Shown piece after piece: positions 1 through 26,078 of a DNA stretch of 26,078 nucleotides; within the stretch, counting starts at the first letter, position 1, and each line of letters begins with the position of its first letter. The translations under genes were made by a program, and so were the position numbers. The notes beneath the pieces were generated by a model, which worked only from the letters and a program-made list of their open reading frames with translations, ran no database searches and was not told the origin of the DNA. Source of the DNA: a virus; the IMG/VR virus record IMGVR_UViG_3300037247_001015, positions 1 through 26,078 of that record; one strand, written 5' to 3'.

Positions 1-792
1 CGCAACGACAGGCGTTCCAAGGTGCCCATCCTCTTCGAGCGCACCTTCGAGGACGGTAACCGCTACGGCGGGGATATCACGTTCTGCCGCAAATGGCGGG
101 CCACCGGCGGCAAGGTCTTCGCTGCCTATGAAATGCGTTTAGGGCACACGGCCAAGACGATCATCACGGACAGCCTGGGGGCAGCTCTTAGGCGCCAGCG
201 GGGGAGCACGCTGCGGTATGTCGCGGATAAGATACGGCAGGGCAGTGAAGACATCGCGCTTCTGAGCGAGGCCCTCAGACACCTGGGGAACCCTTATGGG
301 GCGTCCGAAGACGTGTTGATTCTAGCGGTCTTGATGGCCCGTAAGGCGGACGGCCCGATCCTCGAGATCGGCAGCGGGCTTTCCACAATCCTGATGGCCG
401 CGGCGGTGCCGGAGCAGACGGTCTATTGCATCGAGCACGATCCGGGCTGGGCCGAACGACTGAAGTCCATGGCCTACTCGGCTGGTACGACCAATATCGC
501 GCTCTGCACGCAGCCTATCCGCGATGGCTGGTATGACCTGTCGGACATCGAATTGCCGTCGCGCTTTGCGCTCGCACTGGTCGATGGCCCGCCGCGCAAC
601 CTAGGCAGCCGCATGCCCTTCTACGAGCGCCTGGCTGGGTCTTGCGAGACCATCATCGCCGACGACGCGGATGATCCAGGCTACGCCGAGGCCATCCAGA
701 CATGGGCCAGCCAGAACGGCCGCATGGTCGATTTCGTGGACCAGCGCGCGGCCCTCATTCGATTGCAAGACGAGAAGGAGAAAGCAGCATGA
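1..792 (+). CDS. Glycosyltransferase-like / SAM methyltransferase fusion, 5'-truncated by window edge
   Basis: The frame is open from base 1, so the GTG at 22 is probably internal and the protein starts upstream. Residues below count from that GTG. About residues 14-50 (GGDITFCRKW, then MRLGHTAKT) look like the C-terminal tail of a family 2-type glycosyltransferase, where a [DE]..FC..W pattern and a later LGH are usual. From about residue 110 there is a class I SAM methyltransferase fold: glycine-rich motif I ILEIGSGLS (114-121), an acidic residue ending strand 2 in YCIEHDP (E138), and a DGPP motif at 188-191 typical of Methyltransf_24-like enzymes. It probably modifies a glycan or small acceptor rather than DNA, since no NPPY-type motif is present. 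It overlaps the next gene by ATGA. The methyltransferase half is confident; the glycosyltransferase half is a remnant judged by eye, and the acceptor is unknown. Confidence 0.75.
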   Translation, partial: RNDRRSKVPILFERTFEDGNRYGGDITFCRKWRATGGKVFAAYEMRLGHTAKTIITDSLGAALRRQRGSTLRYVADKIRQGSEDIALLSEALRHLGNPYGASEDVLILAVLMARKADGPILEIGSGLSTILMAAAVPEQTVYCIEHDPGWAERLKSMAYSAGTTNIALCTQPIRDGWYDLSDIELPSRFALALVDGPPRNLGSRMPFYERLAGSCETIIADDADDPGYAEAIQTWASQNGRMVDFVDQRAALIRLQDEKEKAA

Positions 793-1103
793 GCTACGTC
801 AGAAGGCGCTACCGCGTGGTGGACGGCAAGCTGAAGAAGGTCTGGAACGGCACGAACGAACCCGGCTGGTTCAAGGTCAAGGCCGATGCCTGGGCGGCGG
901 CGGCGGTACCGCAAGAGCCGCATCCCACGGCGCCAACGGAGAAGGTCGCCGAGGGCACACCCGCCGCCGACTACGAGACCTGGAAGGCGCCGCAGCTTCG
1001 CGCCGAGATCAAGGTCCGCACCGGCAAGGGTCCGAAAGTGGGCACCGAGTCAAGCAAGGTCGCGATGATCGAGAAATTGCGGGGCCTGGACGCTGCCGCA
1101 TGA
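789..1103 (+). CDS. Small protein with C-terminal SAP/HeH-like domain
   Basis: A 104-aa protein. The ATG at 789 overlaps the upstream stop (ATGA) and has a purine-rich ribosome binding site (GAGAAGGAGAAAG) just before it; longer in-frame starts inside the upstream gene lack this. The basic N-terminus (MSYVRRRYRVVDGKLKKVW) is followed by an Ala/Pro-rich linker. The C-terminal segment, about residues 60-100 (YETWKAPQLRAEIK, later SSKVAMIEKLR), has the pattern of a SAP/HeH-like helix-extended-helix motif, often a nucleic-acid-binding module in phage head-tail linker genes. It lies between the sugar/methyl-transferase gene and the adaptor gene and overlaps both by four bases, so it is probably part of the late structural operon. 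The SAP call rests on pattern only. Confidence 0.7.
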   Translation: MSYVRRRYRVVDGKLKKVWNGTNEPGWFKVKADAWAAAAVPQEPHPTAPTEKVAEGTPAADYETWKAPQLRAEIKVRTGKGPKVGTESSKVAMIEKLRGLDAAA

Positions 1104-1756
1104 GCGATCTCGGTACCATGATCGCGCGCATCAACGACGAGTTGGCGCTTCCGATGGTTGCGGCGCGCATCCCCAATGCCATCCAGGCGGCGATCCGCTA
1201 CTACGAGTCCGAGCGGCTCTGGTTTAACGAGGGGGAATCCACGGCCAGCACGGTAGCGAGTCAGCAGGCTTATGCCATGCCGACCGACTTCCTGGAGCCG
1301 GATGTGCTCACCATCACCTATACGACCGATAACATCCGCTTCACGCTCAAGCGGCGCCCCTGGTCGTGGATGCGCCTGCACCAGATCGATCCGGATACTA
1401 CCTCGCGCCCCCGTGATTGGTCGTACTACGCGGACCAGATCTGGCTCTATCCGATCCCGGATCAGGTCTACACGCTCACGATGTCGCATCTGAAACGCTT
1501 GGCGGCGCTCTCGGCCTTTGCCGATACCAACGAGTGGATGACACACGGCGAGGAACTGATTCGCACCCGTGCCGAGTGGGATCTGCTGTTCCATACGGCG
1601 AAAAACTACAAGGCCGCGGAGGCCTTGGAGCGGGCGGTCGAAAAAGCGCTCTCCAATCTGCGCGGCAAGTCGTCACAGAAGATTTCGACCGGAAAGCTGA
1701 GCTTCGACGACGGGCTCATGACGAGCCGCGGCAACTATCAGATTCTCTACCAATAA
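1100..1756 (+). CDS. Phage head-tail adaptor protein (SU10 adaptor-like)
   Basis: A 218-aa protein starting at ATG 1100 inside the ATGA overlap with the previous gene. The helical N-terminus (LGTMIARINDEL, then IPNAIQAAIRYYESERLWF) is followed by a beta-rich core with YAMPTDFLEPD and a C-terminal helical part containing EELIRTRAEWDLLF. This is the signature I know from SU10-type adaptor proteins, ring-forming proteins bound under the portal that connect head and tail in short-tailed phages. Length fits the family. No stem-loop separates it from the upstream genes, but a hairpin with a T-run lies about 65 bases after its stop, so a transcript may end there before the fibre cassette. A second protein of similar type is encoded at 9289-9915. 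Family call good; exact virion position inferred. Confidence 0.85.
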   Translation: MSDLGTMIARINDELALPMVAARIPNAIQAAIRYYESERLWFNEGESTASTVASQQAYAMPTDFLEPDVLTITYTTDNIRFTLKRRPWSWMRLHQIDPDTTSRPRDWSYYADQIWLYPIPDQVYTLTMSHLKRLAALSAFADTNEWMTHGEELIRTRAEWDLLFHTAKNYKAAEALERAVEKALSNLRGKSSQKISTGKLSFDDGLMTSRGNYQILYQ

Positions 1757-4151: not shown

Positions 4152-5198
4152 ATGGCGTTTCAGGTCATACCTGGTGGAATGTACCTACCCATGATTAGTC
4201 GTGTTGCTTCTCAGTCGTTGCAAAACTTTCTTCTTGACGCGGCGAGTGAAAAGGCAGCAGGGGTCTTCCAGGCGCCAAAAGACGGAACCATTAACAAAGT
4301 TGGGTTTCTAGCGAGGACGGTAACGACCGGAGATACTGTGGACGTGCGTTTGGAGACCGTCAGCGACGCGAATGGAGACCCTACGGGCACGCTCTTAGAT
4401 ACGAACACCAACGCCTCTCAAGTCATTGGCAGTGGCGATGATAATACTTGGTTCCTAACAACACTTACTGCGGGGGCGGCAGTTAGCAAGGGAGATAAGA
4501 TTGCGGTCGTGATCGTGAACGGGGCCGCACCAGGCGACTTGAATATTGGCGTGATCAGTGCGGGCAACCAGAATTTTCCTTACCCTGATCATTTTACGGC
4601 CGCCTGGGCAAAGAATAATGGACGGAGCCCCGTATTTGCGCTCGAATATTCTGACGGAAGTTACGCGATTGCCGATGGGGTTTTCCCTGTTTCGGCAAAA
4701 TCCAACGAGACTCTTGCATCAAATACTACGCCGGACGAGAGGGGCCTTAAATTCAAACTTCCTATTCCGTTTCGCGTGACGAAGTGCTGGTTCGAGATTG
4801 ATCCGAACGATAATTTCGATGTGGTGCTTTACGACAGCGATGACTCGGTTCTGGAAACATATAGTTTTGACAAGGATATTTCAGCGACCAGCAATATTAT
4901 AACTACTCGTATAACATTTGCGTCCCCGCACGAACTTCTCGAGGATACTTTTTATCGTATCACCATCAAGCCAAGTACGACGACCTTGGTTACATTGGGT
5001 GAGTTTGATGTTGACACTGCCGCGATCATGGACTCGTTTGATGGTGGTCAAGATTTTCATCATACCTCGCGTACCGATGGTGGGGCTTGGACCGATACCA
5101 CAACCAAGCGTCCCCTTATGGGACTGTTAATTGACGCTTTCGATGATGGCGTAGGTGGCGGCGCAGCTAGCATTCTCTCAGGAGGGTTTGGGCTATGA
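4152..5198 (+). CDS. Beta-rich virion/fibre structural protein
   Basis: 348 aa, starting directly after the preceding TAG. The sequence is almost entirely short beta-strand-like segments rich in T, S, D, N and G. Residues about 20-150 read like a jelly-roll or carbohydrate-binding type sandwich (VGFLARTVTTGDTVDVRLET, then WFLTTLTAGAAVSKGDKIAV), and a second similar half follows (FRVTKCWFEIDPNDNFDVVL to FYRITIKPS). The C-terminus is Gly-rich (GVGGGAASILSGGFGL), a common ending in phage fibre and hinge proteins. It sits between tailspike and long fibre and overlaps the latter by ATGA. The exact role (fibre shaft, receptor binding or decoration) cannot be read from the sequence. Confidence 0.65.
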   Translation: MAFQVIPGGMYLPMISRVASQSLQNFLLDAASEKAAGVFQAPKDGTINKVGFLARTVTTGDTVDVRLETVSDANGDPTGTLLDTNTNASQVIGSGDDNTWFLTTLTAGAAVSKGDKIAVVIVNGAAPGDLNIGVISAGNQNFPYPDHFTAAWAKNNGRSPVFALEYSDGSYAIADGVFPVSAKSNETLASNTTPDERGLKFKLPIPFRVTKCWFEIDPNDNFDVVLYDSDDSVLETYSFDKDISATSNIITTRITFASPHELLEDTFYRITIKPSTTTLVTLGEFDVDTAAIMDSFDGGQDFHHTSRTDGGAWTDTTTKRPLMGLLIDAFDDGVGGGAASILSGGFGL

Positions 5199-8100: not shown

Positions 8101-9100
8101 CCCCTCTTTGCTTTGGGCGGACGTGCTGACTTTATCGGCATCCGTAGGGCTTACCGATTTTCACATCATTAATGGGTCTACTATTCAACTCACTGGTAAC
8201 AGCGACAATTTCTCACTGTTCGGGAATAACTGGACGCTTGATCTAAACGGTCAATCGGTGGACGGCGCACATTTTGAAGGCGCTACCGTAAGCGGCACTT
8301 TCACAGGCACACCTGAATTTGATGACTGCACCATTGGGTCTATTACTGGGCCGTCCGCTGATCTCCATGATTGCGGCCTAGATGGTACCATCACCGCCAA
8401 CGCCGCGGGCAGTTGGGTAGCCCACCACTGCTACTCGGCCATTGCTGGTGCCACGACCCCGATCTTCGACTACGGCACAGACGCTGCGGTCAACTCCAAT
8501 GTCACGCTTGGGGATTATCGAAACGGTATCGAATTCCGCAACCTGAACAATGCAGGCACGGATCTGCTTAGTCTGTCCGGCACGGGGCAGGTTATCTATG
8601 CGGCCTCGTGTAGCGGGACCGTTAACCAGCGTGGCGAATGGAAGGTCACAAACACGGGCGGTGTGACGATCACCGAGGACGATAACACGGCAAACATCGC
8701 GGGTATCCTGGCCGATACTGACAATATCCAGACGCGGCTCCCGGCGGCACTCGTTGGGGGGGCGATGGATTCAAACGTGAGTGCCTTGCAGGCCAATGTC
8801 ATAACGGCAGCAGTAATCGCCGCAGCGGCTTTGAATGGCAAGGGCGATTGGAACATCGGTAAGACCGGGTACGCGCTGAGCGCGGCGGGCGTTGATGCGA
8901 TCCTGGACGAGACTTACGAGGGCACCACAACGTTCCGCCAATTCCTGCGCCTCGCGGCGGCCCCGCTCTTCGGCATACTCGCCGGAGCGGCGACCACGAC
9001 CGTGACCATCCGTGACGAGGCGGACAGCAAGGATCGGATCACGGCGACCGTTGACAGTTCCGGTAACCGCACGGCCGTCACCCTCGACAAGACGGCCTGA
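5195..9100 (+). CDS. Large modular tail fibre protein with duplicated domains
   Basis: 1301 aa; ATG 5195 overlaps the prior stop. Visible modules: an N-terminal beta domain (1-110); two related repeats of about 65 residues (about 190-255 and 300-370) with the pattern [FI].L.AG....[AF]YND.[VL].V; two linker repeats, ADAIWDEATADH (about 270) and ADAVHDEALADH (about 385); two beta-solenoid-like domains (about 413-636 and 957-1165) sharing HHC, AIAG/AVAG, GTGQVIYAASC/GNGQLIVDASC and RGEWKVT/RGNFKLT; and a C-terminal tail with AILDETYEGTTTFRQFLRL plus a beta hairpin ending TAVTLDKTA. Cysteines recur within the solenoids. This architecture fits a long trimeric fibre built by duplication. Most of the gene is AT-rich, but the last roughly 700 bases return to the GC-rich backbone style, suggesting a conserved attachment end joined to an exchanged shaft. 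Confidence 0.8.
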   Translation: MKIPAGSTDVSLFVYFVDDVGGTNPGEPTTGLLFSDIETGGSASYARQGAARVDLELITLASASAAHADGGFILLDNTSMPGVYRVDYPDAAFVVGVEMAVIQLVAASAKNTIMRPLWIDLETVQADLDNATDGLGALKALIDAIPTTAMRGTDNALLAASINLTGGAVDTVTTLTGKQGFNAMVDTTVATVNSQTDFDLTAGSGDDDAYNDAVVVFEDADGDQSFRRVTNYTAASNNIVIDAAPDFTVVATDPVRIYPAAVTPTAAVIADAIWDEATADHITVGTFGQRLSTLESGTAVAATASTITLDAGSSELADFYNDTLIVITAGTGAGQARFISDYAVTTNVATVNSNWITTPSTDSVYYIIPFGSIPGASAPTAAQVADAVHDEALADHQIQGSAGAAVTMTAYLGPQGPGVYLDDGVANTGTTLGDDGTREKPVSTIAAATTIASGLGVQLIYLVNDTVTTLAQTYEGWVFVGLGLSNKITLGSQDVDNSEFCNLILTGTQGGTGQLYAHHCSLTALVSAELIAMSCWLTGNNTLRAATTHIFKDCCSAVAGDATPDLTFPGSGTTEVNFRHYSGGLTVKSGTTNDTISFEGNGQLIVDASCTSLTVRPRGNFKLTDNGTTTDIELEAVPNLTNIKAEFDTALADINLDHFMKVAVTDSDVVDDSALAKLADAGATADWSNYRNEEDSQRAISEKVGAIGTVTGSGFPYAVDGDNTLRDTIDNAAAVDKGGGLVGIPVTGHGFVAGKEITIAGSTNYNNAYAIVSQTTNEVVITETYAAETFGGSETIVSSIEGVVFVGTQTLTFAATEAEDGATHDILHDNNVIDIVYSISIDGGQRATDIELKGFVNSANDNILVQAFDFAGSDWETRGTLVGQGGSSNKTVAVKALAKHTGTGANLGQIYVRLITEAGSSSPTLKTDELFVDASGIGQSVGYALGRIWANTLSGVAGTVPFTHGVGDNPSLLWADVLTLSASVGLTDFHIINGSTIQLTGNSDNFSLFGNNWTLDLNGQSVDGAHFEGATVSGTFTGTPEFDDCTIGSITGPSADLHDCGLDGTITANAAGSWVAHHCYSAIAGATTPIFDYGTDAAVNSNVTLGDYRNGIEFRNLNNAGTDLLSLSGTGQVIYAASCSGTVNQRGEWKVTNTGGVTITEDDNTANIAGILADTDNIQTRLPAALVGGAMDSNVSALQANVITAAVIAAAALNGKGDWNIGKTGYALSAAGVDAILDETYEGTTTFRQFLRLAAAPLFGILAGAATTTVTIRDEADSKDRITATVDSSGNRTAVTLDKTA

Positions 9101-9288: not shown

Positions 9289-9915
9289 ATGGCGATCTCC
9301 TCCTACGGCGAGTTGAAAACCGCTGTGGCCAATTTTCTTACGCGCGCCGACCTGACAGCGCGCATCCCCGAGTTTATCGCGCTTGGCGAGGGGCGGCTGT
9401 TTACAGACCTGCGGTGCCGGGAGATCGAGGCGACAGCCAATATAGTCCTCACAGCGGCCCAACGTGCCGACCCGTTGCCTACGAGATTCGTGCAGGCACG
9501 CTCGCTTTATCTGGCTGGGTCGCCCAATGTCCGCCTCGAATACCGCAGCCCGGCCGAATACTGGTCGGTCTATGCGGACATTCCTACCGCACCTCCCGAG
9601 TATTACACCATCGAGCAGGAAGACTTCCTTTGGGGCCCGGTCCCGGACGCCACCCCGACGGTCACCGTGGCGCACTACGCCCGGCCCGCCGCCTTCTCGG
9701 CAGACGCGGACACCAACGCCATCATTGCGCGCTGGCCCAACTTCTACCTCTACACGGCGCTCCTCGAATCCGCGCCATTCCTGGGTAACGACCCGCGCAT
9801 CGTTACCTGGGCAGGACTCTATGAGACCCTGCTGGAGAGCGTCCACGCGGCCGACAAGCGCGACCGTTACTCCGGTGACGTGATCGTGCCCGACCGGGAC
9901 GCGCAACTGACATGA
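9289..9915 (+). CDS. Second adaptor-like head-tail connector protein
   Basis: 208 aa from ATG 9289. The pattern is that of phage adaptor proteins: a helical start (SSYGELKTAVANFL, then IPEFIALGEGRLFTDLRCRE), a beta core (YRSPAEYWSVYADIP, YYTIEQEDFLWGPVPD, TVTVAHYARP) and a C-terminal helix in which the subunit ends (DTNAIIARWPNFYLYTALLE and on). The DTN.....W..LYL.A....A.....D pattern is common in SU10 and P22-gp4-like connectors. It is followed by the nozzle/hub gene with an ATGA overlap, which is the usual order in short-tailed phages, so this is more likely than the 1100 gene to sit next to the nozzle. The two adaptor-like proteins are not obvious recent duplicates. Confidence 0.8.
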   Translation: MAISSYGELKTAVANFLTRADLTARIPEFIALGEGRLFTDLRCREIEATANIVLTAAQRADPLPTRFVQARSLYLAGSPNVRLEYRSPAEYWSVYADIPTAPPEYYTIEQEDFLWGPVPDATPTVTVAHYARPAAFSADADTNAIIARWPNFYLYTALLESAPFLGNDPRIVTWAGLYETLLESVHAADKRDRYSGDVIVPDRDAQLT

Positions 9916-11735
9916 GTCTGACCGAGCGCCTGTCCAAGCTGAGCGATTACCCTCAGACACCCCCTCCTGCCGCCCTGGAGAAGCGCAGCCCGGGCCTGCA
10001 CGCCCGCATGTTGGAGGTCTACCAGATACTCCAGCAGACCAGCCCGGACTGGCCGACCATCCCATTCGGGGATTGGATGCCCGATCTGCCGGACTTCGCC
10101 AACCCGGGAGCCACGGTGGCCAAGAACGTCATCCCGGCGGAGCGCAGTTATCGGCCCCTGGGGGCGCTTCAGGCGGCCACGGACGCACTTGCCGCAAGAG
10201 CTCTTGGCGCCGCCATCGGCCGGGATTCGGCTGGCAATCACTTCAATTATGCGGGCGATGTGTCCAAGCTTTACGAGGTGCGCGCCTCTGGTGTGACGGA
10301 CAAGTCGAAGGGCGGGGGGTATTCTACGGGCTCGGGCGAGATCTGGGAGTTCGCCCTGTTCGGCAACCGTTTGATCGCGACCAATTACACCGACGCGGTA
10401 CAGGGGATCGACGTGGGGGCCGCCGGGTTGTTTGCCGACCAATTCACCTCGACCCTGACTCCGAAGTTTCGGCACTTGGCGGTCGTGCGTGAGTTCCTGG
10501 TTGGTGGCAACAGCAATGACGCGACGGACGGCGTAGTGCCGCACCGCACTTGGTGGTCGGCCTACAAAGACCCCTTGGACATGGACCCCGACGCACAAAC
10601 GCAGTGTGATTTCGAGGACCGCCCTGCGGCGGGCTGGGTGCAACGCATCGTGGGCGGGCTGGAGTATGGTTTGGTTTTCCAGCAGCGCGGTATCACGCGC
10701 ATGAGCTATGCGGGCGGCGAGACTATCTTTCAGTTCGACTCCATCGACAGAAAACGCGGCACGCCCATTCCCAATTCCGTGATCGGCCACGGGCGAATGG
10801 TCTATTTTATTTCCGAGGAGGGTTTTTTCGTCACGGACGGCACCCAGAGCTATCCCATCGGGGCCAATCAGGTTGATAGAACCTTCTGGGGCCAGTTCGA
10901 CATAAGCAACGCTCACTTGGTTTCCTCCGCCATCGACCCGCTGAACAAGCTGGTGGCCTGGGCCTTCCTAGGCGCGGGCGGCGTGCTCAAAATCTTCTTC
11001 TACGACTGGCAGGACCGGCGCTGGTCCGAGGCCGAGGTGGAGGTAGAAATACTGGTCAACGCCACCTCGGAAGCCTTTACCCTGGAGGAGCTCGACGCCG
11101 TGGCCCTCGATTCCGCGGCGGACACGACCATAAGCGTCAACGAGGCCGGCGGGCAGACGGTTATTTCCGTCACCAGCGAGTCAGGTTTCTCCGCCAACGA
11201 TACGGTGCGCATCACGCTCAACGATGCGAGCATTCACCAGACGACCGTGGCGAGCGTGGCGGCTGGCGAGATTACCATAGACGATGCCCTGCCGAGCGCG
11301 GCGGACTCGGGCAATCGCTTCGTGCGCACCACCATTGACGTGCTCACGCCCTCCCTCGACAGCCCGCAGTGGCAGGGCGGTGGGTTGAACTTCGGCGCCT
11401 TCGACACGGCGCACAAGCTGGCCTATTTCGACGGGGCGAACTTGGCGGCCACCATCGAGACCGGCGAGGCGCAGCTTAACCCCGGCGGGCTGAGCAAATT
11501 GACCAAGCTGCGTCCGCTTATCGACGGCGGCACCATCACGGCACAGGTGGCGGGACGGGACCGCTTGATTGACGCCGTGGCGTTTGGCGGTTCTGGGGCT
11601 CTGGATGATATTGGCGAGATCGGGATTTTGGACGAGTCCCGTTACCACCGCATCCGCTGCTCCATTGCTGCGGGGGGAAGTTGGAACCACGCCCAGGGAG
11701 TCCAGGCGCAAGTGAGCCCCATGGGGTCGCGGTAA
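9912..11735 (+). CDS. Tail nozzle/hub protein (podovirus, P22 gp10 / T7 gp12-like role)
   Basis: 607 aa from ATG 9912 (ATGA overlap). After a helical leader (residues 1-50), the segment IPFGDWMPDLPDFANPGATV followed by AKNVIPAERSYRPLGAL is the conserved entry of phage tail hub or nozzle proteins. A repetitive beta-propeller-like region follows (EIWEFALFGNRLIATNYT, KFRHLAVVREFLVGGN, GLVFQQRGITRMSYAGG, GRMVYFISEEGFFVTDG). At about residues 390-475 an additional beta domain is inserted (DTTISVNEAGGQTVISVTSE to ITIDDALPSA), after which propeller-like sequence resumes. It would close the tail tube and hold the spikes. Position after an adaptor and before inner-virion genes agrees with this. The assignment to a particular model phage protein is by analogy, not alignment. 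Confidence 0.8.
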   Translation: MSLTERLSKLSDYPQTPPPAALEKRSPGLHARMLEVYQILQQTSPDWPTIPFGDWMPDLPDFANPGATVAKNVIPAERSYRPLGALQAATDALAARALGAAIGRDSAGNHFNYAGDVSKLYEVRASGVTDKSKGGGYSTGSGEIWEFALFGNRLIATNYTDAVQGIDVGAAGLFADQFTSTLTPKFRHLAVVREFLVGGNSNDATDGVVPHRTWWSAYKDPLDMDPDAQTQCDFEDRPAAGWVQRIVGGLEYGLVFQQRGITRMSYAGGETIFQFDSIDRKRGTPIPNSVIGHGRMVYFISEEGFFVTDGTQSYPIGANQVDRTFWGQFDISNAHLVSSAIDPLNKLVAWAFLGAGGVLKIFFYDWQDRRWSEAEVEVEILVNATSEAFTLEELDAVALDSAADTTISVNEAGGQTVISVTSESGFSANDTVRITLNDASIHQTTVASVAAGEITIDDALPSAADSGNRFVRTTIDVLTPSLDSPQWQGGGLNFGAFDTAHKLAYFDGANLAATIETGEAQLNPGGLSKLTKLRPLIDGGTITAQVAGRDRLIDAVAFGGSGALDDIGEIGILDESRYHRIRCSIAAGGSWNHAQGVQAQVSPMGSR

Positions 11736-13756: not shown

Positions 13757-14857
13757 ATGCCGGAAATCATGCCACAGCAGGGCGGCTATCAGCTCGACCC
13801 CATGCTCCAGCAGTACATGCAGCAGCAACGCCAGATGCAGTTTTTCAACACGCTCAAGCAGTTGGGCCAGGGTTTCTTACGCTCGGCTGGTGGGCCTGCG
13901 GCCCGGTTCGCCGGGGCCTTCCCCCAGGGCCAGGGTGGCGGGGGTGGCATGCTCGACATGATCCGTCTCCAGGACATGCTGGAGCGGCAGCGTGACCGGC
14001 AGACTAAAAGAGAACGGGCGCGCAAGCAGGACTTCGCCCAGGACGCCCTGGCCGCAGGCGACCGCTACGACCCGGGCAATCAGATCCTCTGGGATCAGCC
14101 CCCGGCCGCGGGGCAGGAACAGCCCGCCGCGACCGAGCAACAGCGTCAGGGCCTTCTTGCCCAGGCTTATCCGGAGCCCTACGGCAAGGCGCAGATCGAG
14201 CGGGAGTTTCCCGCGCCCGTCGATTACTCCACGCCCACGACCGTTCTGGGCCCGGACGGTAAGCCCCAGTTGGTGCGCTTCCCCAAGAAGGGTACGGGAG
14301 CGCCGCGCCCAGTAGAGGGATATCAACCGTACAGTAAGCCCGGCGAAGCCCCAGCGCTGCTTCAATACGCGGACGCCTACAAAGCCGCCATGGCCAAGGA
14401 GGGTAAGCCGGTATCCGATGCGGTGGCCCTGCGCTGGGCGCGCACGTCGGTCAGCAAGAGCCCGGAGGAGGTCTGGGTCAGCGTCTATAACACGAACCGC
14501 CGCGCCTTCGAGGACGACGCCGCCGCACGCAAGATGGCCGACGAAATCAGCAAATATGTGGCAAGCTTTCAGACAGGAGGGCCACCGGCACAAGCAACCG
14601 CCCCAACTCCAAGCCCCAGCCTGCCCGGCGCGGCCGAGGCGGCCGTTCCCAGCGGGCCCGGCGTCCCGCAGCGCAAGCCAAACCTGGCGGGGCAAGTCCT
14701 TCCCATCGAGGACGAGACGGCGGTTGCCCTTGACCCGACCCTCAAGGCCCGCGTGGACGGCGGTGAGGAATTGAACGATGCCGAGCTGCAAAAGCTGAAA
14801 GCCGAGAACCCCGGTCAGTTCTGGGCGCTCTACGATTACGTGAAGTCCGCCCGATGA
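13757..14857 (+). CDS. Inner-virion structural protein, Gln/Pro-rich
   Basis: 366 aa from ATG 13757, three bases after the previous stop. The N-terminus is Gln/Met-rich (PMLQQYMQQQRQMQFFNTLK), followed by a Gly-rich stretch (QGQGGGGGMLDMIRLQDMLE) and a charged helix (RQRDRQTKRERARKQDFAQD). A Pro/Gln-rich linker, a small domain around residues 175-275 (LLQYADAYKAAMAKEGKPVS to VSVYNTNRRAFEDDAAARKM) and a C-terminal ELNDAELQKLKAENPGQFWA segment follow. It overlaps the polyvalent gene by ATGA, so the two are probably translationally coupled and co-assembled. No enzyme motif seen. Confidence 0.7.
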   Translation: MPEIMPQQGGYQLDPMLQQYMQQQRQMQFFNTLKQLGQGFLRSAGGPAARFAGAFPQGQGGGGGMLDMIRLQDMLERQRDRQTKRERARKQDFAQDALAAGDRYDPGNQILWDQPPAAGQEQPAATEQQRQGLLAQAYPEPYGKAQIEREFPAPVDYSTPTTVLGPDGKPQLVRFPKKGTGAPRPVEGYQPYSKPGEAPALLQYADAYKAAMAKEGKPVSDAVALRWARTSVSKSPEEVWVSVYNTNRRAFEDDAAARKMADEISKYVASFQTGGPPAQATAPTPSPSLPGAAEAAVPSGPGVPQRKPNLAGQVLPIEDETAVALDPTLKARVDGGEELNDAELQKLKAENPGQFWALYDYVKSAR

Positions 14858-17800
14858 CGCTGCTCGAGAGCATGGAGCGCATCGCCGGCGAGCCCGAGGG
14901 CGGTGGCATGCTGGCTGCCCTGGAGCGCGTGGCGGGTCCGGACCATATCCCCCGCCGTAAGCCGGAAATCCGCCGCCTGCAACCGGGCGAGTTCATGCAG
15001 AACCCGGACGGTAGCCGCTCCACCGAACTTTCCGTGACGGTCAACAATCCGGCCATCAACCAGGGCCGTCCGACCAACATCCCTACAATCTACAGCGTTG
15101 GCGGCCGGCCTCGGCGCGTACCTGAAGAACAGGCCATCGCGCACGCTTTGGGCACAGGCGAGAAGTTTCCCTCCTTCGACAGTATGGAACAGGCGGTTGC
15201 CGCCGCAGAGGCGCGCTCCGATGCCGGCGGGCGGTTTGCCGATGCCGGGCCGAGGACCTTGAGCGTCGAGCAGTTCGAGGCGGGCCTGCCGCCCCCGGTG
15301 CCAGAGGTCCCCAGCCTGACTCGTAGCGCCGTGCACGGAATCGCCCAGGGCGCGGCTGGTGGTATTGCGGCTTTCCCGGAGCAGTTCGGCATAGGCAACC
15401 AGGCCGGGCCACGGTGGATATACGAGCAGTTCGGCAAGATGGATCGTGGCGAGCGACCATCGTTGGGGATGCTGGCCGGCGACACGGCGCGCGTCGTCGA
15501 ATACTTCCATGGCGATGAAGCCACCCGGCAGAGGCTCCGGCAAGACATAGGGGGCGAGATCAGACCCGTTGCCGAGGAACCTGCCTACCAATTAGGCCAG
15601 CGCATCCGCGAGAGCACCGCCGAGGCGTTCCCGGTCGCCCCCGAGCACGAGGGCCGCTTCCCCGTCGCGCTCGGGCGCGGCCTGGGCAGCACCGGAACCT
15701 TCTTGCTCACGGGCCTTGCCGGGCGTGTCCTGCGCCTGCCCGCGCTTGGCGTCGTGGCCGGGACCGGCGCGGTGGCAAACTCCGCGGAGGTGTTCCGGGA
15801 CGCTATCGACCGGGGCGCGTCTTTCGAGGATGCCCATAAGGCAAGCAAGTTAGCCGGGCTGGTCGGCACCTCCGAGGCGGTGCCCATCGTGAAGCTCCTT
15901 GACCGCTTGGACGACGCCACGGGCGGGCAGATACGCCGGATAATTATCCGCGCGGGCCAGGGCGGGCTGGAGGAAGGAGCCCAGGAGCTATTCCAGTCGA
16001 TCTCGGAAAACCTCATCGCTTCCGATCTGGTTGCTTACGATCCCGAGCGCCGCACCTTCCAGGGTACAGGCGAAGCGGCAGGCGTCGGCTTCACCGTGGG
16101 TGTGTTGTTTAATATGCTCGCCTCCATGCTGGGGGCCAAGATGCGCCGGGCGCCCTCCGCTAAAGACTCCGCTGCGGCCCCTGGGGAGCCCGCACAGGCC
16201 GATCTCGCTCCCGGCGTGGCGCAGGTGGGGGTCGGCGCGGCATTGCAGCAGCGGCGCCAGGAAGCGGCCCCACCCACAGAACCCACCACGCCACAACCAG
16301 AAGCCAGGCCAGAAGATGTCCTAGAGCTGACAGAGCGCGCAGAGCCCAAAGACCCAGTGGAAGAAATACTGGAATTAACGCGGCGAGCGCCACGGGCTCC
16401 CGTAGAAGCTCCAGCAGCGCGTCCAGAAGGGGTTTCTCAGGAAGCGGCTCCACAGGCCGAGGTTAGCACCGCCAGGCCCGATGAGCCAGTCATGGTGCGG
16501 CCCGAGCCGGCCGAGCGCTTCCCGGGCAAGAAGATCCCGCGCAAGCGCCCCGTGCGGACCAAGCCCCTCACCCTGGCCGAGTTCATCGCCGCCGAGGGCG
16601 GCATGCAGGACGTGACCGGCGAGCTCAAGGCCATGGACGCGCAGCTTTGGCATCGCGGCAAGCCCTTCCGCGGGCGTCTGGTGCGGGACGACGGCAAATC
16701 CCCCGCTGAGATGGCTGCGATTCTCACCGAGGCCAAATACCTGCCCGAGAACGAGGTGGGACGGGGCTCAGCGACGGCGAACGAGCTCTACGAGGCGCTG
16801 AGCGAGGAACTGGCCGGGCGCAACGTCTATTCCGAGTTCGACCGCTCGGAAGTAGAGCGGCGCGCCGAGCAGGACCAGGCCGAAAGCCAGCGGGACGAGG
16901 CTGAATACCGCCGTGAAGCCCTGCGGGATCAGGCGCGGGAGGCGGGCATTCCAGAGCAGGCAATCGAGCGCCTGGACGATACGGCGCTCTCCAACGCGGT
17001 GGCCTACGAGATCGAGGCGCGCTCGACGCCGGAAACGGCTGACAGGGACGCCGAAATAGTAGAGACTGAGGCCGACCGCCTGATAGAGGAGGCTCGCGAT
17101 GCCTTCGCAGACTATGAATGGAACGACCCTGGGGACCTCCCCGTCCGAGCCCTTGGCGCGCTCCCGGAGGCGCCTGGCCTACCTGGAGGCGAAGCTGCAA
17201 GATCCGAACCTGGCCCCGCCGCTGCGCGAGAAGGTGAAGGCCGCCCGGAATATGCAGGCCCGCGCGGTGCGGATCAGGCAGAAGTTGAGCAAGTAACCTC
17301 TGGAAGCCCTGAATACGAAGCCGCCTATCAGGCGAGCACCGCCGCCAGCAAGAAATTCCGCAAGTTTGAAGAAGCCTATCGCACCCGGATGGCCAGCGAT
17401 GAGGAATTCCTGGCCGCGAGGGCAGAGCACGAGGTTGCGCAAAAGAAATTCGATGAGGCGTTTGCTGCCGAGCAAAAGAGGAAGCCCGCCACCGAGGCGG
17501 CCGGCCCGAAGAAATCCCTGTTTGCCAGCCGATCCGTCGCCAACGCAGCCGATATCGTCGACTGGGCGCGGGAGCAGGGATTTAAGACCACACTCGCCCC
17601 TGATGACATGCACGTCACGATTGCCCATTCCAGCGCCGCAGTGGCGTGGGGCGCGGCGGGCAAGGCCACGCCAGCAGAGCGCGTCGAGGGTGGCAAGCGC
17701 ACAATCGAGGCTCTCGGCGACAACGGCGCGGTGGTGTTGCGATTCGACTCCCCAGCATTGCAAACGCGCTGGCAGCAATACCGTGATGCTGGGGCGTCAT

Positions 17801-20800
17801 GGGACTTTCAAGGGTACAAGCCGCACATCACAATCACTTACGAGGGCGGCGATGTTGACCTATCAAAGGTCGAGCCCTACGCCGGGCCAATCCTTCTCAG
17901 TTCGGAACGGCAAGAACCAGTCGACGAGGACGCGGTTTCCAAGGTCGATGAAGTGCCGACTGGGGCGGCCGCAACGCCCTCCACCGAAACCACCCCCCAG
18001 GGCCTCCAGGCCGTCATCCCCGGTGCCGAGCGGATCGGCAACCGCGCTCTGATTGAACGGCGCATGGATGATGTTCTGCGCGCGGAGGCCGAGCAGAAGC
18101 CTGCTGACGAGGGCCTGTTCGACGTGGCGGGCCGTGGGCAAGCGGACTTGGTGGAGCAGGCGAAGGCACCCAAGCCAGCGCCGAAACAGGGCAATCTGAA
18201 GGCCGCTGCCAAGCTGCGTAAGACCGCCGACGGTTTGCAAAAGCAGATCGACGCCAAGAGGAATCCCGGCATCGCCGATCAGAACTTCACGCCCCGGCGG
18301 GCACGCATCGCGGAGGGCATGCGCCGGGATGCGGATCGTATTGAAGAAATCCAGACCCAGCTTCGCACTCTGGCCGATCTGCAAGAGCGCGGCGAAGCGC
18401 CCACCCTTCTGGCGAAGATCACCAGCAAGGCTCAGATCGAAAGCCTACGTTGGCGAGATTTTCCGACAGAGGCTTACGACACGGGCGGGCCTGCGCGATT
18501 GAAGAAGGCCGGCATCACGACCGGAAACTTCGATAAGGCCAAGCAGGCGCTTGAGCAGCTTTCCGCCGATGTTGTGGAACAGCAGCGGACGGAACGAAAG
18601 CAGGGGCGCCTCAAGCAGCGCATCCAAGAGATCGAATACGGCCGCGGCATCAAGGACTTCTTCCAGACGCCCGAGGCCGTCGCCCAGCGCATGGTGGAGA
18701 TGGCCGACATTCAGCCGGGTATGGAGGTCTTGGAGCCCTCGGCCGGTGCCGGCGCGATCGCGCGGCAGATCAGGGAAGCGGCTCCCGATGCTAATCTCAC
18801 GACGGTCGAGGCGGCCCCGAAGTTGGCAGAGATACTGCGTGAGCAGGATTTCGAGGTACGCCAGGAGGACTTTCTGGAAAGAGGCGGGGCCTACGACCGG
18901 ATCATCATGAACCCGCCCTTTTCGAAGGGCCAAGACGTGGCCCATGTCCGCCATGCCTACGAGATGCTGGGCCCCGGCGGGCGACTCGTCAGCATTATGA
19001 GCCCGCACGGGTTTTTTGCGAACGACAAGAAATCCCAGGACTTCCGAGCGTGGCTCGAGGAGCGCCAGGTTACGCTTGACGATGTTGAGGGCTTGGAAAG
19101 CGGCACCTTCGAGCAGACGGGTGTCTCTTCCAAGCTGGTCGTCATCGACAAGCCCGATCCCGTTACCGAGATGCACGCCGGCGTTCACCTGCCCTCCCTG
19201 CAACGCTTCTGGGCGCCGGCCGCAGACCGCATCATCGACTCCCTCGCCGAGGGCAAGTACAGCCCCTTCGCGCGCTACCTGAAGGGCTATCCCTTCAAGG
19301 ATCCAACCATGGGGGGCCTGCCGGAGCGTGCCGAGTACCTGGGCAAGCGCGGCGTCACGCAAGGGACCATATACCGCACGAACCGGGCGGCCGGGCGGCT
19401 CAACGATGCCTTGCGCAAGGCCCCCGAGGCCGACCAGCGCGCCGCTCTCGACTATCTGACGACCGAGGGTGCGGACCCCAAGACTCTGCCGCCCAGTGTC
19501 AGGGGCGCGGCGGTGGCGGCCAAGTCTTCGATCAAGAAGCTGGGCAAGCAACTGGTGCGCAGTGGGCAACTCTCCCCGGAAGCCTACGAGCGCCACGCGG
19601 ACGCCTACCTGCCGCGGGTCTATCTCAAGCACCTCATGGAGCGCACGGGCTTCGGGGCGGGGCTGAAGATCAGCGATCAGGGCTATCTCAAGGAACGCAC
19701 CGACCTGCCGGCGGAATACCGCGATCTCTACCTGGGCGAGATCAAGGACGTGGGATTCCTGGTCACCAAGGCGCTCAGCCAGCCCGCGCGGGATCTGGCC
19801 ATGATCGACTTCCTGCGGGACGTGTCGCGGAACCCGAACTGGGTACTGCAGGAGAGTCTTGTCGAGTGGACGGCGCCGGGCATGACCAAGCCCAGGAAAG
19901 TGACGCCCTACTGGCTCAAGGCGGAGGCCGATTTTCTACGCAGGCGGGCCGCGGCCATGCCGGACCTCGAGCAGCGTGCGCGTGCCCGGGAGATCGCGGA
20001 CCAGATGAGCGAGACGGCGGAGGCCGGCCTGGGCCTGTTCCGCGAGGCCCACGGGCGCATCCCGAAGGACTACCGCGAGATGCCTGACAACCCCCGCTAC
20101 GGCGATCTCAGGGGCTTGGTCGTTCGCCGGGAGGTCCATGACGACATCGTGGGCGCCGGCGGCATGTGGGTTGGAGAAAAAGGGGCCTACGACAAAACCT
20201 TCGACAAGCTCGCCAGCTTCAACGCTTGGTGGAAGATGATGAAGGTGCCCTTCAATCCGCCGACGCAAATCCGAAATTTCGTCTCCAACGGTGTGCTGCT
20301 GGATGTCTCGGGTGTGCCCTTCCAGAAATTGCCCATCCTTTACGCTCGCGCCTTCAACCAGATCAGGAAGAACGGCAAGCACTACCGCATCGCGGTCAAG
20401 CACGGCATCCCGGCCTCGACGTTTACGGCGGCGGAACTGTACCGCATCAAGCCCGATATCTTGCGGGTCAAGGGAGAGAAGGGCGGGGTGGCTGGCAGGC
20501 TCTACCGCATGGCCGAGCCCCTGGCGCGGATCGCCAAGGCCCCGGGCGACCTCTACCAGTTCTCCGAGACCTGGGGAAAGACGGTCAAGATCATCGACGC
20601 CATGGAGCGCGAGGGGATGAGCGAGGAGCAGGCCGTGGCTGCGGCGCAAGAAGCCCTGTTCGACTATTCGCTGGTGCCCTCTCTCGTCAAAGCACTAAGG
20701 ACCCGGCCCATCGGAGCGCCGTTCATCACGTTTTATTACAAGGCATTTCCGGCCGTGATGAAGGGCGCCATCCGCCATCCAGGCAAGATGGCCAAGTACT

Positions 20801-21573
20801 ACATCCTGCCCTACGTGCTCGGGGACATGCTGGTGGCGTCTCTCAGGGACGTGGACGAGGAGGACGTGGACAAGCTGCGCAAGGCCCTGCCCCAGTGGTT
20901 GCAGGACCAGGGGCACGTCTACCTCTTTCCCTACAAGGACGAATCCGGCCGCTGGGCTTTCGTGAACTATGGCTATTTCCTCCCGTGGGCGTTGCACGAG
21001 CGCACCATGCGCAATGCCATGGAAGTGGCCACAGGGGAGTACGAGGGTTCGGTCAACGATCTTATGTCCGAGGTGGGTATCCTGGGCGGGCCGGTGCCGC
21101 AGATCATCTCTGCGCTAATGACGGGCGTCGATCCCTGGACGGGCCGGGAGATTGTCAAGGACACCGATCCGCCGCGCGAGCAGATTTACAAACTCATGAT
21201 GTACGCTTGGCGCATGATGGGGCCGTCGTGGCTCACGGACCAGGGCGTTCTCGGCCACATGCAGCGCTCGATCGAGGGCACGCCCAACTACTACGGCGAT
21301 GCGCCGCTCTCGCCCGCGCAGGCCGCCGGCCGGGCCGTGGGCGTCAACATCTACCCGACCGATCCGGTACAGAGCCGACAGCGCAACATCCGGCGCAAGG
21401 CTTTCGAGATCGAGCGGACTAGGCGTGATGCCAAACGGACCCTGCGCAACAAGGCGCTCACGCCGGAACGCCGCGGGGATCTGCGCAAGCAGTACCGAGC
21501 CCAAATTGACCGTCTGAGAGAAGACCTGAAGCGCTACCGCGCGGTAAGCCAGGTCCATCCCAACCTGAGGTAA
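14854..21573 (+). CDS. Giant phage polyvalent protein with 2H-phosphodiesterase and DNA methyltransferase domains
   Basis: 2239 aa from ATG 14854 (ATGA overlap). Parts in order: about 43-125, a phage module with NPDGSRSTELS, RPTNIPTIY and FPSFDSMEQAVAAAEARSD; 270-430, a Gly/Ala-rich hydrophobic segment (GRGLGSTGTFLLTGLAGRVL and on) suited to membrane insertion; 430-560, a Pro/Glu linker; 570-675, a domain seen in other polyvalent proteins (KPLTLAEFIAAEGG, WHRGKPFRGRLVRDDG); 675-880, charged helices; 889-1025, a 2H phosphodiesterase with H920-V-T922 and H991-I-T993, resembling anti-CBASS Acb1; 1115-1240, helical lead-in; 1265-1435, an N6-adenine-type methyltransferase with EPSAGAGAIA (1294-1303) and NPPF (1353-1356); 1440-2239, a structural C-terminus with a hydrophobic FITFYYKAFPAV near 1957. 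Position among inner-virion genes suggests it is ejected with the DNA. Domains are read by motif; ejection is inferred. Confidence 0.85.
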   Translation: MTLLESMERIAGEPEGGGMLAALERVAGPDHIPRRKPEIRRLQPGEFMQNPDGSRSTELSVTVNNPAINQGRPTNIPTIYSVGGRPRRVPEEQAIAHALGTGEKFPSFDSMEQAVAAAEARSDAGGRFADAGPRTLSVEQFEAGLPPPVPEVPSLTRSAVHGIAQGAAGGIAAFPEQFGIGNQAGPRWIYEQFGKMDRGERPSLGMLAGDTARVVEYFHGDEATRQRLRQDIGGEIRPVAEEPAYQLGQRIRESTAEAFPVAPEHEGRFPVALGRGLGSTGTFLLTGLAGRVLRLPALGVVAGTGAVANSAEVFRDAIDRGASFEDAHKASKLAGLVGTSEAVPIVKLLDRLDDATGGQIRRIIIRAGQGGLEEGAQELFQSISENLIASDLVAYDPERRTFQGTGEAAGVGFTVGVLFNMLASMLGAKMRRAPSAKDSAAAPGEPAQADLAPGVAQVGVGAALQQRRQEAAPPTEPTTPQPEARPEDVLELTERAEPKDPVEEILELTRRAPRAPVEAPAARPEGVSQEAAPQAEVSTARPDEPVMVRPEPAERFPGKKIPRKRPVRTKPLTLAEFIAAEGGMQDVTGELKAMDAQLWHRGKPFRGRLVRDDGKSPAEMAAILTEAKYLPENEVGRGSATANELYEALSEELAGRNVYSEFDRSEVERRAEQDQAESQRDEAEYRREALRDQAREAGIPEQAIERLDDTALSNAVAYEIEARSTPETADRDAEIVETEADRLIEEARDAFADYEWNDPGDLPVRALGALPEAPGLPGGEAARSEPGPAAAREGEGRPEYAGPRGADQAEVEQVTSGSPEYEAAYQASTAASKKFRKFEEAYRTRMASDEEFLAARAEHEVAQKKFDEAFAAEQKRKPATEAAGPKKSLFASRSVANAADIVDWAREQGFKTTLAPDDMHVTIAHSSAAVAWGAAGKATPAERVEGGKRTIEALGDNGAVVLRFDSPALQTRWQQYRDAGASWDFQGYKPHITITYEGGDVDLSKVEPYAGPILLSSERQEPVDEDAVSKVDEVPTGAAATPSTETTPQGLQAVIPGAERIGNRALIERRMDDVLRAEAEQKPADEGLFDVAGRGQADLVEQAKAPKPAPKQGNLKAAAKLRKTADGLQKQIDAKRNPGIADQNFTPRRARIAEGMRRDADRIEEIQTQLRTLADLQERGEAPTLLAKITSKAQIESLRWRDFPTEAYDTGGPARLKKAGITTGNFDKAKQALEQLSADVVEQQRTERKQGRLKQRIQEIEYGRGIKDFFQTPEAVAQRMVEMADIQPGMEVLEPSAGAGAIARQIREAAPDANLTTVEAAPKLAEILREQDFEVRQEDFLERGGAYDRIIMNPPFSKGQDVAHVRHAYEMLGPGGRLVSIMSPHGFFANDKKSQDFRAWLEERQVTLDDVEGLESGTFEQTGVSSKLVVIDKPDPVTEMHAGVHLPSLQRFWAPAADRIIDSLAEGKYSPFARYLKGYPFKDPTMGGLPERAEYLGKRGVTQGTIYRTNRAAGRLNDALRKAPEADQRAALDYLTTEGADPKTLPPSVRGAAVAAKSSIKKLGKQLVRSGQLSPEAYERHADAYLPRVYLKHLMERTGFGAGLKISDQGYLKERTDLPAEYRDLYLGEIKDVGFLVTKALSQPARDLAMIDFLRDVSRNPNWVLQESLVEWTAPGMTKPRKVTPYWLKAEADFLRRRAAAMPDLEQRARAREIADQMSETAEAGLGLFREAHGRIPKDYREMPDNPRYGDLRGLVVRREVHDDIVGAGGMWVGEKGAYDKTFDKLASFNAWWKMMKVPFNPPTQIRNFVSNGVLLDVSGVPFQKLPILYARAFNQIRKNGKHYRIAVKHGIPASTFTAAELYRIKPDILRVKGEKGGVAGRLYRMAEPLARIAKAPGDLYQFSETWGKTVKIIDAMEREGMSEEQAVAAAQEALFDYSLVPSLVKALRTRPIGAPFITFYYKAFPAVMKGAIRHPGKMAKYYILPYVLGDMLVASLRDVDEEDVDKLRKALPQWLQDQGHVYLFPYKDESGRWAFVNYGYFLPWALHERTMRNAMEVATGEYEGSVNDLMSEVGILGGPVPQIISALMTGVDPWTGREIVKDTDPPREQIYKLMMYAWRMMGPSWLTDQGVLGHMQRSIEGTPNYYGDAPLSPAQAAGRAVGVNIYPTDPVQSRQRNIRRKAFEIERTRRDAKRTLRNKALTPERRGDLRKQYRAQIDRLREDLKRYRAVSQVHPNLR
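17099..17296 (+). CDS. Possible nested gene inside the polyvalent ORF
   Basis: A 65-aa ORF in another forward frame, fully inside the polyvalent gene. ATG 17099 is preceded by AGGAGG (17087-17092) with 6 bases spacing, one of the best ribosome binding sites in the window. The product has a Ser/Thr-rich start, then looks like a basic two-helix coil: ARSRRRLAYLEAKLQDPNLA, then PPLREKVKAARNMQARAVRI. In the same stretch the main frame reads as a low-complexity Pro/Gly/Ala/Glu linker, which is compatible with the sequence being constrained by the second frame. It could be a genuine nested small protein, or the relic of a gene once fused or shifted. No known family. Confidence 0.35.
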   Translation: MPSQTMNGTTLGTSPSEPLARSRRRLAYLEAKLQDPNLAPPLREKVKAARNMQARAVRIRQKLSK

Positions 21574-25270: not shown

Positions 25271-25630
25271 ATGACCATCTGGAAACCCATCATCCTGCTG
25301 CTGTTCCTGGGGGCCTGCACGCCCAGCCAACTCTACACGACATTCGAGGAAGCTGGTGCGGCCGGGAAAGCCTATGTGAACGAGCAGATCATGGTCCGGC
25401 AGGATTACCGCGGAAAGAAACGTGTGGCGGTGGACGCCGAATACCGGGCTGAGATGCGTTCCGCCGATGAAGCCGAGCGAGCCGGGAAAATGGAGAAAGC
25501 CAAGGAGCATTGGGCCGCCGCCCGCGCGGTTATCGACCAGAACATGCCGGACTTGAAGGCGGCGAAGGAAAAGCTCAAGGACTTCTTCGAACCGGCCAAG
25601 ACCGACCCGAGCATCAAGCCCGCCGAATGA
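25271..25630 (+). CDS. Small lipoprotein, spanin-like candidate
   Basis: 119 aa from ATG 25271 with GAGGAAAG just upstream. The N-terminus MTIWKPIILLLFLGACTPSQ is a lipoprotein signal peptide with lipobox L13-G14-A15-C16; cleavage before C16 would leave a lipid-anchored protein with T at +2, compatible with outer-membrane sorting. The mature part is mostly charged helix, especially 60-105 (RAEMRSADEAERAGKMEKAK, then KAAKEKLKDFF). Placed after endolysin and holin and overlapping a lipase gene, it could be the outer-membrane part of the spanin system, although no inner-membrane partner is seen. A superinfection-exclusion lipoprotein is another possibility. Confidence 0.75.
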   Translation: MTIWKPIILLLFLGACTPSQLYTTFEEAGAAGKAYVNEQIMVRQDYRGKKRVAVDAEYRAEMRSADEAERAGKMEKAKEHWAAARAVIDQNMPDLKAAKEKLKDFFEPAKTDPSIKPAE

Positions 25631-26078
25631 AATCCCGCTATCCTCTGGGTGATTTGGCCTGGCTTTCGGCGCTGGTGTACGAGCCTTGGCCAGAGGTAGA
25701 GCGTGAACTTAAACCCCGGGATATAAAGCTTGTCGCCACCCTGGACCACCGGGGCACACAAGCCATGCTGGTAAAAGCCCCGGCTTGGCAGGCCATTGTC
25801 TTTCGAGGTACGGAAGCATCAAAGGGCAGCATCATCGATCTATTCAGGAATCTGGCCCGCCCCTGGCCGGTTCCCTGGATGGGTCCGGGCAAGTGCCACG
25901 CCGGGTATCGGGATGCGCTGGCAGCCATTGCCTTCGAAGCCGGGGAGATGGCCAAGAAAGTACCTTCTAAGATTCCCCTCTATGTCGCCGGCCATTCCAT
26001 GGGAGCCGCGCTGGCGACCCTCTATGCGGCTTGGTATGCCCACGCTTATCCGAAATGGAAACTCGCCGCTTTAGTCAG
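25627..26078 (+). CDS. Class 3 lipase, 3'-truncated by window edge
   Basis: At least 150 aa from ATG 25627 (ATGA overlap with the lipoprotein); the frame is open to the end of the window. The pattern is that of Lipase_3 enzymes: AWQAIVFRGTEAS (about 56-68, oxyanion-loop strand), CHAGYRDAL (about 93-101) and the nucleophile elbow VAGHSMGAALATL with S124 in GHSMG. The catalytic Asp and His would lie beyond the window. No signal peptide, so it is made in the cytoplasm. Its reaction would be hydrolysis of acyl esters, perhaps membrane phospholipid or host lipid. Four-base coupling to a lipoprotein in the lysis module suggests expression with lysis genes. Family confident; role inferred. Confidence 0.85.
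   Translation, partial: MKSRYPLGDLAWLSALVYEPWPEVERELKPRDIKLVATLDHRGTQAMLVKAPAWQAIVFRGTEASKGSIIDLFRNLARPWPVPWMGPGKCHAGYRDALAAIAFEAGEMAKKVPSKIPLYVAGHSMGAALATLYAAWYAHAYPKWKLAALV

What the first reader, a model, noticed from the sequence alone, without database searches (positions are those of the whole stretch)
17518..17930. Acb1-like 2H phosphodiesterase (candidate anti-CBASS) embedded in a giant polyvalent protein
Seen: residues 889-1025 of the 2239-aa protein contain two H-x-T motifs, HVT at 920-922 (17611-17619) and HIT at 991-993 (17824-17832), 71 residues apart, each in a strand-like context (DMHVTIAHS and YKPHITITYEGGD), followed by DLSKVEPYAGPILL. Known: this is the 2H phosphoesterase signature. 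T4 Acb1, which degrades CBASS cyclic nucleotides, has, as I recall, H44/T46 and H113/T115, a spacing of 69. Inference: the enzyme sits in a protein encoded with inner-virion genes, so it may be injected with DNA and remove CBASS signals before early genes are expressed. A virion-delivered anti-CBASS enzyme fused to a methyltransferase would be a new arrangement.
Basis: partly seen in the sequence, partly recalled or inferred. Interest (0 to 1): 0.85.

Follow-up and report, generated by a model that had tools for sequence, protein, structure and literature searches.

The report
Acb1 enzyme inside phage ejection protein
A phage protein that is probably injected into the host with the viral DNA carries, as a removable module, an enzyme domain of the family that destroys the alarm molecules of the bacterial CBASS immune system; similar fusions had been noticed and their role predicted, but injection by the virion and activity on CBASS signals have not been shown.

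Summary
Residues 889-1028 of the 2239-aa protein (17518-17937) match Pfam Acb1 (PF23474) at E 9e-36, fold with confidence (pLDDT 89), and resemble solved Acb1 (7t27, Z 16.5) much more than LigT (Z 10.8). The HxT/HxT tetrad is intact. Among T4's ligand contacts, F107 and E141 are kept, Y12 is F, and W74 and the lid W147 are absent. The domain belongs to a large Acb1 branch fused to portals, MuF proteins, head proteases and other polyvalent proteins, separate from T4 57B.

The gene lies late, after an ejection protein and before a tail fibre. A related phage has its ortholog, with an N-terminal transglycosylase, where P22 encodes gp16. In a close relative (79% identical C-terminus), exactly the Acb1 stretch (164 aa) and the methyltransferase stretch (345 aa) are missing: both are removable modules.

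So virion delivery is likely but inferred. CBASS signals are the likeliest substrate, untested; action in the producing cell is a real rival. Iyer et al. 2017 already reported 2H domains in phage polyvalent, portal and MuF proteins and predicted signal destruction, so this is a new member of a known kind.

The parts
14854..21573 (+). Giant polyvalent protein, 2239 aa
   Evidence: ORF; multiple unrelated enzymatic domains
17518..17937 (+). Acb1-family 2H phosphodiesterase domain, residues 889-1028
   Evidence: PF23474 E 9.4e-36; AF2 pLDDT 89; 7t27 Z 16.5
17611..17619 (+). First HxT motif, HVT 920-922 (T4 H44/T46)
   Evidence: H44 invariant in all letters of 73 sequences, T46 73/73
17824..17832 (+). 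Second HxT motif, HIT 991-993 (T4 H113/T115)
   Evidence: H113 invariant, T/S at 115 in 72 of 73
17521..17523 (+). F890, at T4 Y12 (base-stacking)
   Evidence: alignment
17806..17808 (+). F985, at T4 F107 (base-stacking)
   Evidence: alignment
17914..17916 (+). E1021, at T4 E141 (adenine N6 contact)
   Evidence: alignment; role in T4 from PMC9117128
17488..17979 (+). Removable module holding Acb1 (residues 879-1042), exactly absent from the ortholog in L016
   Evidence: three-way alignment and junction coordinates
18154..19188 (+). Removable module (residues 1101-1445) holding the DNA methyltransferase domain (about 18646-19161), absent from L016
19189..21570 (+). Conserved C-terminal scaffold (residues 1446-2239)
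   Evidence: 79% identical in L016, 44% in L017, 27% in phage ctwe8250
12902..13753 (+). Ejection-protein homolog
   Evidence: phrog_4287 DNA ejection protein E 1.9e-10
13757..14857 (+). 366-aa protein directly upstream, kept in the same place in the L016 phage (37%)
21668..22909 (+). Tail-fibre-like gene downstream
   Evidence: PHROG tail fibre matches
671..1756 (+). SU10-type adaptor protein (short-tailed phage)
   Evidence: PF24175 E 2.5e-17
9912..11735 (+). Virion structural protein
   Evidence: phrog_3287 E 4e-56

Best explanation
The domain is a catalytically competent Acb1-family 2H phosphodiesterase carried as an optional cargo module in the largest ejection protein of a short-tailed phage (the place of P22 gp16). 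The protein is made late, packaged in the head or neck and ejected with the DNA; in the new host the domain cleaves 3'-5' bonds of cyclic oligonucleotides by metal-free acid-base catalysis and so blunts CBASS or a related signalling defence from the start of infection. Shown here by computation: family, fold, intact tetrad, late and ejection-type gene context, removability. Inferred: packaging, injection, substrate, anti-CBASS effect.
For: Family and fold: Pfam Acb1 E 9e-36; closest solved structures are Acb1 7t27/7t26, Z 16.5/16.4, rmsd about 2 A, against 14.2 for a Burkholderia phage phosphodiesterase and 10.8 for LigT. Catalysis: in 73 sequences under 70% identical, H44, T46 and H113 are invariant, and positions 12 and 107 are almost always aromatic or His, so the virion-fused branch appears to be under selection as an enzyme; the window keeps F107 and E141. 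Virion link: relatives are fused to portals of three Pfam types, MuF, S78_2 and DUF2213 head proteins and to giant proteins with SLT, SNase+LPD38 or NUDIX. Ejection: neighbour phrog_4287; the L062 ortholog has an SLT domain and lies in the order Ad3 adaptor, Hc3, DNA ejection protein, another gene, giant protein, tail fibre. Module: exact absence of residues 879-1042 in L016.
Against: No experiment on this protein. W74 and the lid W147 are absent in the window (E and A). W74 is not a feature of this branch, but W147 is kept in 55 of 73; its ortholog L062 also has A there, so it is a lineage trait that could alter substrate. The gene is late, so the enzyme could act in the producing cell. Host and its defences are unknown (no relative in genome contigs). 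The window is a 26-kb fragment.
Confidence: 0.55

Rival explanations
1. An active 2H enzyme that acts mainly in the cell where it is made: as a late product it removes cyclic nucleotides when CBASS is triggered by late phage components, and its presence in an ejection protein is incidental.
For: The gene is in a late structural cluster. Solo Acb1 proteins such as T4 57B work from expression in the infected cell.
Against: Repeated fusion of the same domain to portals, MuF, head proteases and ejection-type proteins is hard to explain if the place in the virion did not matter; expression alone would not need fusion.
Confidence: 0.2
2. An injected 2H enzyme with another substrate: other nucleotide signals (for example cyclic triadenylate of type III CRISPR) or RNA ends with 2',3'-cyclic phosphate, or an RNase like Usb1.
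For: 2H superfamily is diverse; Iyer et al. 2017 proposed RNase as one option; lid Trp and W74 missing; a second phage 2H phosphodiesterase (9q2y) is also similar, Z 14.2.
Against: Sequence and fold are nearest Acb1, clearly above LigT and Usb1; the adenine-contacting E141 and stacking F107 are kept; Hobbs 2022 found nine further Acb1 relatives all active on 3'3'-cGAMP and cAAA, though whether any is virion-fused was not determined here.
Confidence: 0.2
3. A catalytically irrelevant or structural domain in a head or ejection protein.
For: It is built into a structural-type protein.
Against: Catalytic residues are the most conserved columns of the family; a close relative does without the whole domain while keeping the scaffold, so it is not structurally required.
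Confidence: 0.05

Closest known systems
T4 Acb1 (57B) and FBB1 Acb1 (PDB 7t26/7t27)
   Same: Fold (Z 16.5), HxT/HxT tetrad, F107 and E141 positions
   Different: T4-type is a solo ~152-aa protein and a separate branch (100/100); here a module in a 2239-aa protein, with Y12 to F and no W74 or W147
2H domains of phage polyvalent proteins and portal/MuF fusions (Iyer et al. 2017, PMC5512222)
   Same: Same kind of architecture and same proposed role against nucleotide signalling
   Different: That paper predates Acb1 and leaned also to RNase; here the domain is identified as Acb1-family and shown to be removable between close relatives
Acb1-bearing portal of cyanophage Pam3 (PDB 8hds, 'Pam3 portal protein')
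   Same: Closest PDB sequence; C-terminal Acb1-like domain on a virion protein
   Different: Fused to a portal; second motif is H-x-S
P22-type ejection proteins (gp7, gp20, gp16)
   Same: Gene order in the L062 phage: Ad3, Hc3, DNA ejection protein, another gene, giant protein, tail fibre
   Different: No sequence match of the giant protein to gp16 was found; analogy of position only

Membership tests
Acb1 family (PF23474) | Sequence match above curated cut-off over the whole domain | tested here: met
   123 bits against cut-off 27; model positions 3-142 of 144
Acb1 family (PF23474) | Acb1 2H fold | tested here: met
   AF2 pLDDT 89.4; 7t27 Z 16.5, rmsd 2.2 over 134
Acb1 family (PF23474) | HxT/HxT catalytic tetrad | tested here: met
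   HVT 920-922, HIT 991-993
Acb1 family (PF23474) | Metal-free cleavage of 3'3'-cGAMP, cUA or cAAA | not testable with these tools
   needs purified protein
T4-type Acb1 branch | Full base-stacking set Y12, W74, F107, W147 | tested here: not met
   F, E, F, A in the window; W74 is rare in the family (2 of 73) and W147 is kept in 55 of 73, so this excludes the T4-type branch, not the family
T4-type Acb1 branch | Groups with 57B in a tree | tested here: not met
   T4-type solo proteins split off at 100/100; window with the virion-fused branch
Phage polyvalent protein | Several unrelated enzymatic domains in one polypeptide of a tailed phage | tested here: met
   Acb1 plus DNA methyltransferase; late structural context
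Phage polyvalent protein | Packaged in the virion and delivered to the host | not testable with these tools
   needs virion proteomics; context supports it

The most novel reading that the evidence does not exclude
The largest ejection protein of these short-tailed phages has cargo sites into which counter-defence enzymes (Acb1, methyltransferase and others) are swapped, so that the virion injects an anti-CBASS enzyme before any phage gene is expressed.
Probability: 0.4. Interest if true: 0.75.

Novelty: new member of a known kind. Interest (0 to 1): 0.5.

Why it matters
All tested Acb1 proteins act after expression, as far as the papers read here tell. If the virion-fused branch is active, many phages bring the antidote to cyclic-nucleotide immunity with them. 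The window/L016 pair, with and without the module on the same scaffold, is a natural test of whether the domain is dispensable cargo, and the Acb1 branch on portals makes the question answerable with cultured phages such as phiPSA1, RHEph04 or Pam3.

Tried and rejected
C-terminal scaffold structure: AF2 from three sequences gave pLDDT 45, pTM 0.29, so no fold search was made. LPD38 in the scaffold: no Pfam match and hhalign to L067's LPD38 region was not significant. Host identification through bacterial genomes: no relatives of the domain or the scaffold by the pattern search used, which is limited and does not show absence. A search for relatives of the stretch just before the domain found none. 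PADLOC gave only methyltransferase-type matches. NCBIfam gave no Acb1 model match for T4 57B either, so it is uninformative. phrog_755 'RNA ligase' and 'prohead protease' labels on solo Acb1 genes were rejected as function calls. Paper search for the BCSR5 phosphodiesterase found nothing. Searches for papers on virion-borne Acb1 or Acb1 in portals found none on point; the library holds only open-licence papers.

Full report
Observation. The ORF at 14854-21573 encodes 2239 aa. T4 57B was fetched and has H44, T46, H113 and T115, as in Hobbs et al. 2022 (PMC9117128). The stretch is a full-length Pfam Acb1 domain: 123 bits, E 9.4e-36, residues 889-1028; LigT scores only 25.7 bits on the isolated domain, against 130.1 for Acb1.

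Fold. AlphaFold2 with nine window and viral-contig sequences gave mean pLDDT 89.4, pTM 0.83. Foldseek ranks FBB1 Acb1 first. VIA-align gives Z 16.5 and 16.4 for Acb1 with and without product, 14.2 for a Burkholderia phage phosphodiesterase, 10.8 for LigT, about 9 for Usb1.

Active site. Position 12 is Y in 68, 107 is W, F, H or Y wherever present, W147 is kept in 55, E141 in 34, W74 in 2. The window has F, F, A, E and E at 12, 107, 147, 141 and 74. Its ortholog L062 has the same except Y at 12. So the catalytic centre is intact, the adenine contact is kept, and the lid tryptophan is lost in this lineage. Substrate preference may differ from T4.

Which Acb1. A maximum-likelihood tree separates T4-type solo proteins (100/100) from a branch holding the window and domains fused to virion proteins; inside that branch many forks are weak. 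Fusion partners are Phage_portal, Phage_portal_3, Portal_Mu, MuF, S78_2 protease and DUF2213. The Pam3 portal has a solved structure entry and is the nearest PDB sequence. A scan of viral contigs with the C-terminal half found 307 encoding relatives, 80 kept. Several sit in giant proteins: L062, 2660 aa, with an SLT transglycosylase; L067, 2702 aa, with SNase and LPD38; L064 and L105 with portal and NUDIX; L072 with NUDIX and an ADP-ribosyltransferase match.

Module gain and loss. L016 lies on a 53-kb contig and encodes a giant protein 79% identical to the window's over residues 1446-2239. Aligned with L062 and the window, it passes directly from ...EFAAEERRQP to TTEATPQG..., so window residues 879-1042 (Acb1) are missing with conserved sequence on both sides; residues 1101-1445 (methyltransferase) are likewise replaced by 5 aa. 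No Acb1 match occurs anywhere on that contig (the search engine found no control hit in that call, but the same family search rings in the window and four other records). L062, much more distant (41% over 563-1103), has Acb1 in the same place. The simplest reading is that Acb1 was present in the common ancestor and lost in L016; repeated gain cannot be excluded.

Ejection context. In the window the order is ejection-protein homolog (phrog_4287), a 366-aa protein, the giant protein, a tail-fibre-like gene, with an SU10-type adaptor upstream. In the L062 phage it is Ad3 adaptor, Hc3, a 331-aa protein, DNA ejection protein (phrog_598), a protein of at least 324 aa, the giant protein, a tail fibre. 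From general knowledge this is the P22 order gp4, gp10, gp26, ejection proteins, tailspike, with the giant protein in the place of gp16. In the L016 phage, terminase, portal and Hc3 are on the same contig and a tail fibre follows. In phage ctwe8250 a 2166-aa protein with a related C-terminus closes the structural block. These are positional arguments; packaging is not shown.

What was known. Iyer et al. 2017 (PMC5512222) describe 2H domains in phage-type polyvalent proteins and in MuF and portal fusions, state that 2H is found only in the phage type, and propose either an RNase or destruction of nucleotides from counter-invader systems. They also list DNA adenine methylases and lysozyme domains in such proteins. 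Hobbs et al. 2022 found nine further Acb1 relatives all active on 3'3'-cGAMP and cAAA; whether any is virion-fused could not be read from the text. No open-licence paper reporting a virion-borne Acb1 was found.

Verdict. Acb1-family phosphodiesterase: about 0.95. Catalytically active: about 0.8. Delivered by the virion: about 0.75. All together with CBASS or a related cyclic-oligonucleotide signal as target: 0.55. These are judgements, not computed values.

Noticed in passing
L064:3732-10190, L105:4086-11480, L072:6885-11210: Acb1 next to a NUDIX domain in giant proteins, two of them with a portal domain and two with an ADP-ribosyltransferase match; the pairing NUDIX-Acb1 recurs.
   Followed up: partly
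L067:3771-11876: 2702-aa protein with SNase, Acb1 and LPD38, a classical polyvalent protein.
   Followed up: partly
L057:4989-5441 (phage DSS3P8 gp129): Annotated as prohead protease but the 150-aa product is essentially an Acb1 domain; the label may come from Acb1-protease fusions.
   Followed up: partly
L062:8436-10300: By eye, after Acb1 the ortholog has an ART-like HGT...YLT stretch and an HEVIH metallopeptidase-like motif; not tested with models.
   Followed up: no
window 25510-26076: Lipase class 3-like gene at the window's edge; a similar gene lies downstream in the L016 phage, and an esterase/lipase in the L062 phage.
   Followed up: partly
window 5195-9100: 1301-aa protein in the structural region without any Pfam or PHROG match.
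   Followed up: no
L052:15149-15601: Acetyltransferase-like gene among the late genes of the L016 phage, near the giant protein that lacks Acb1.
   Followed up: no
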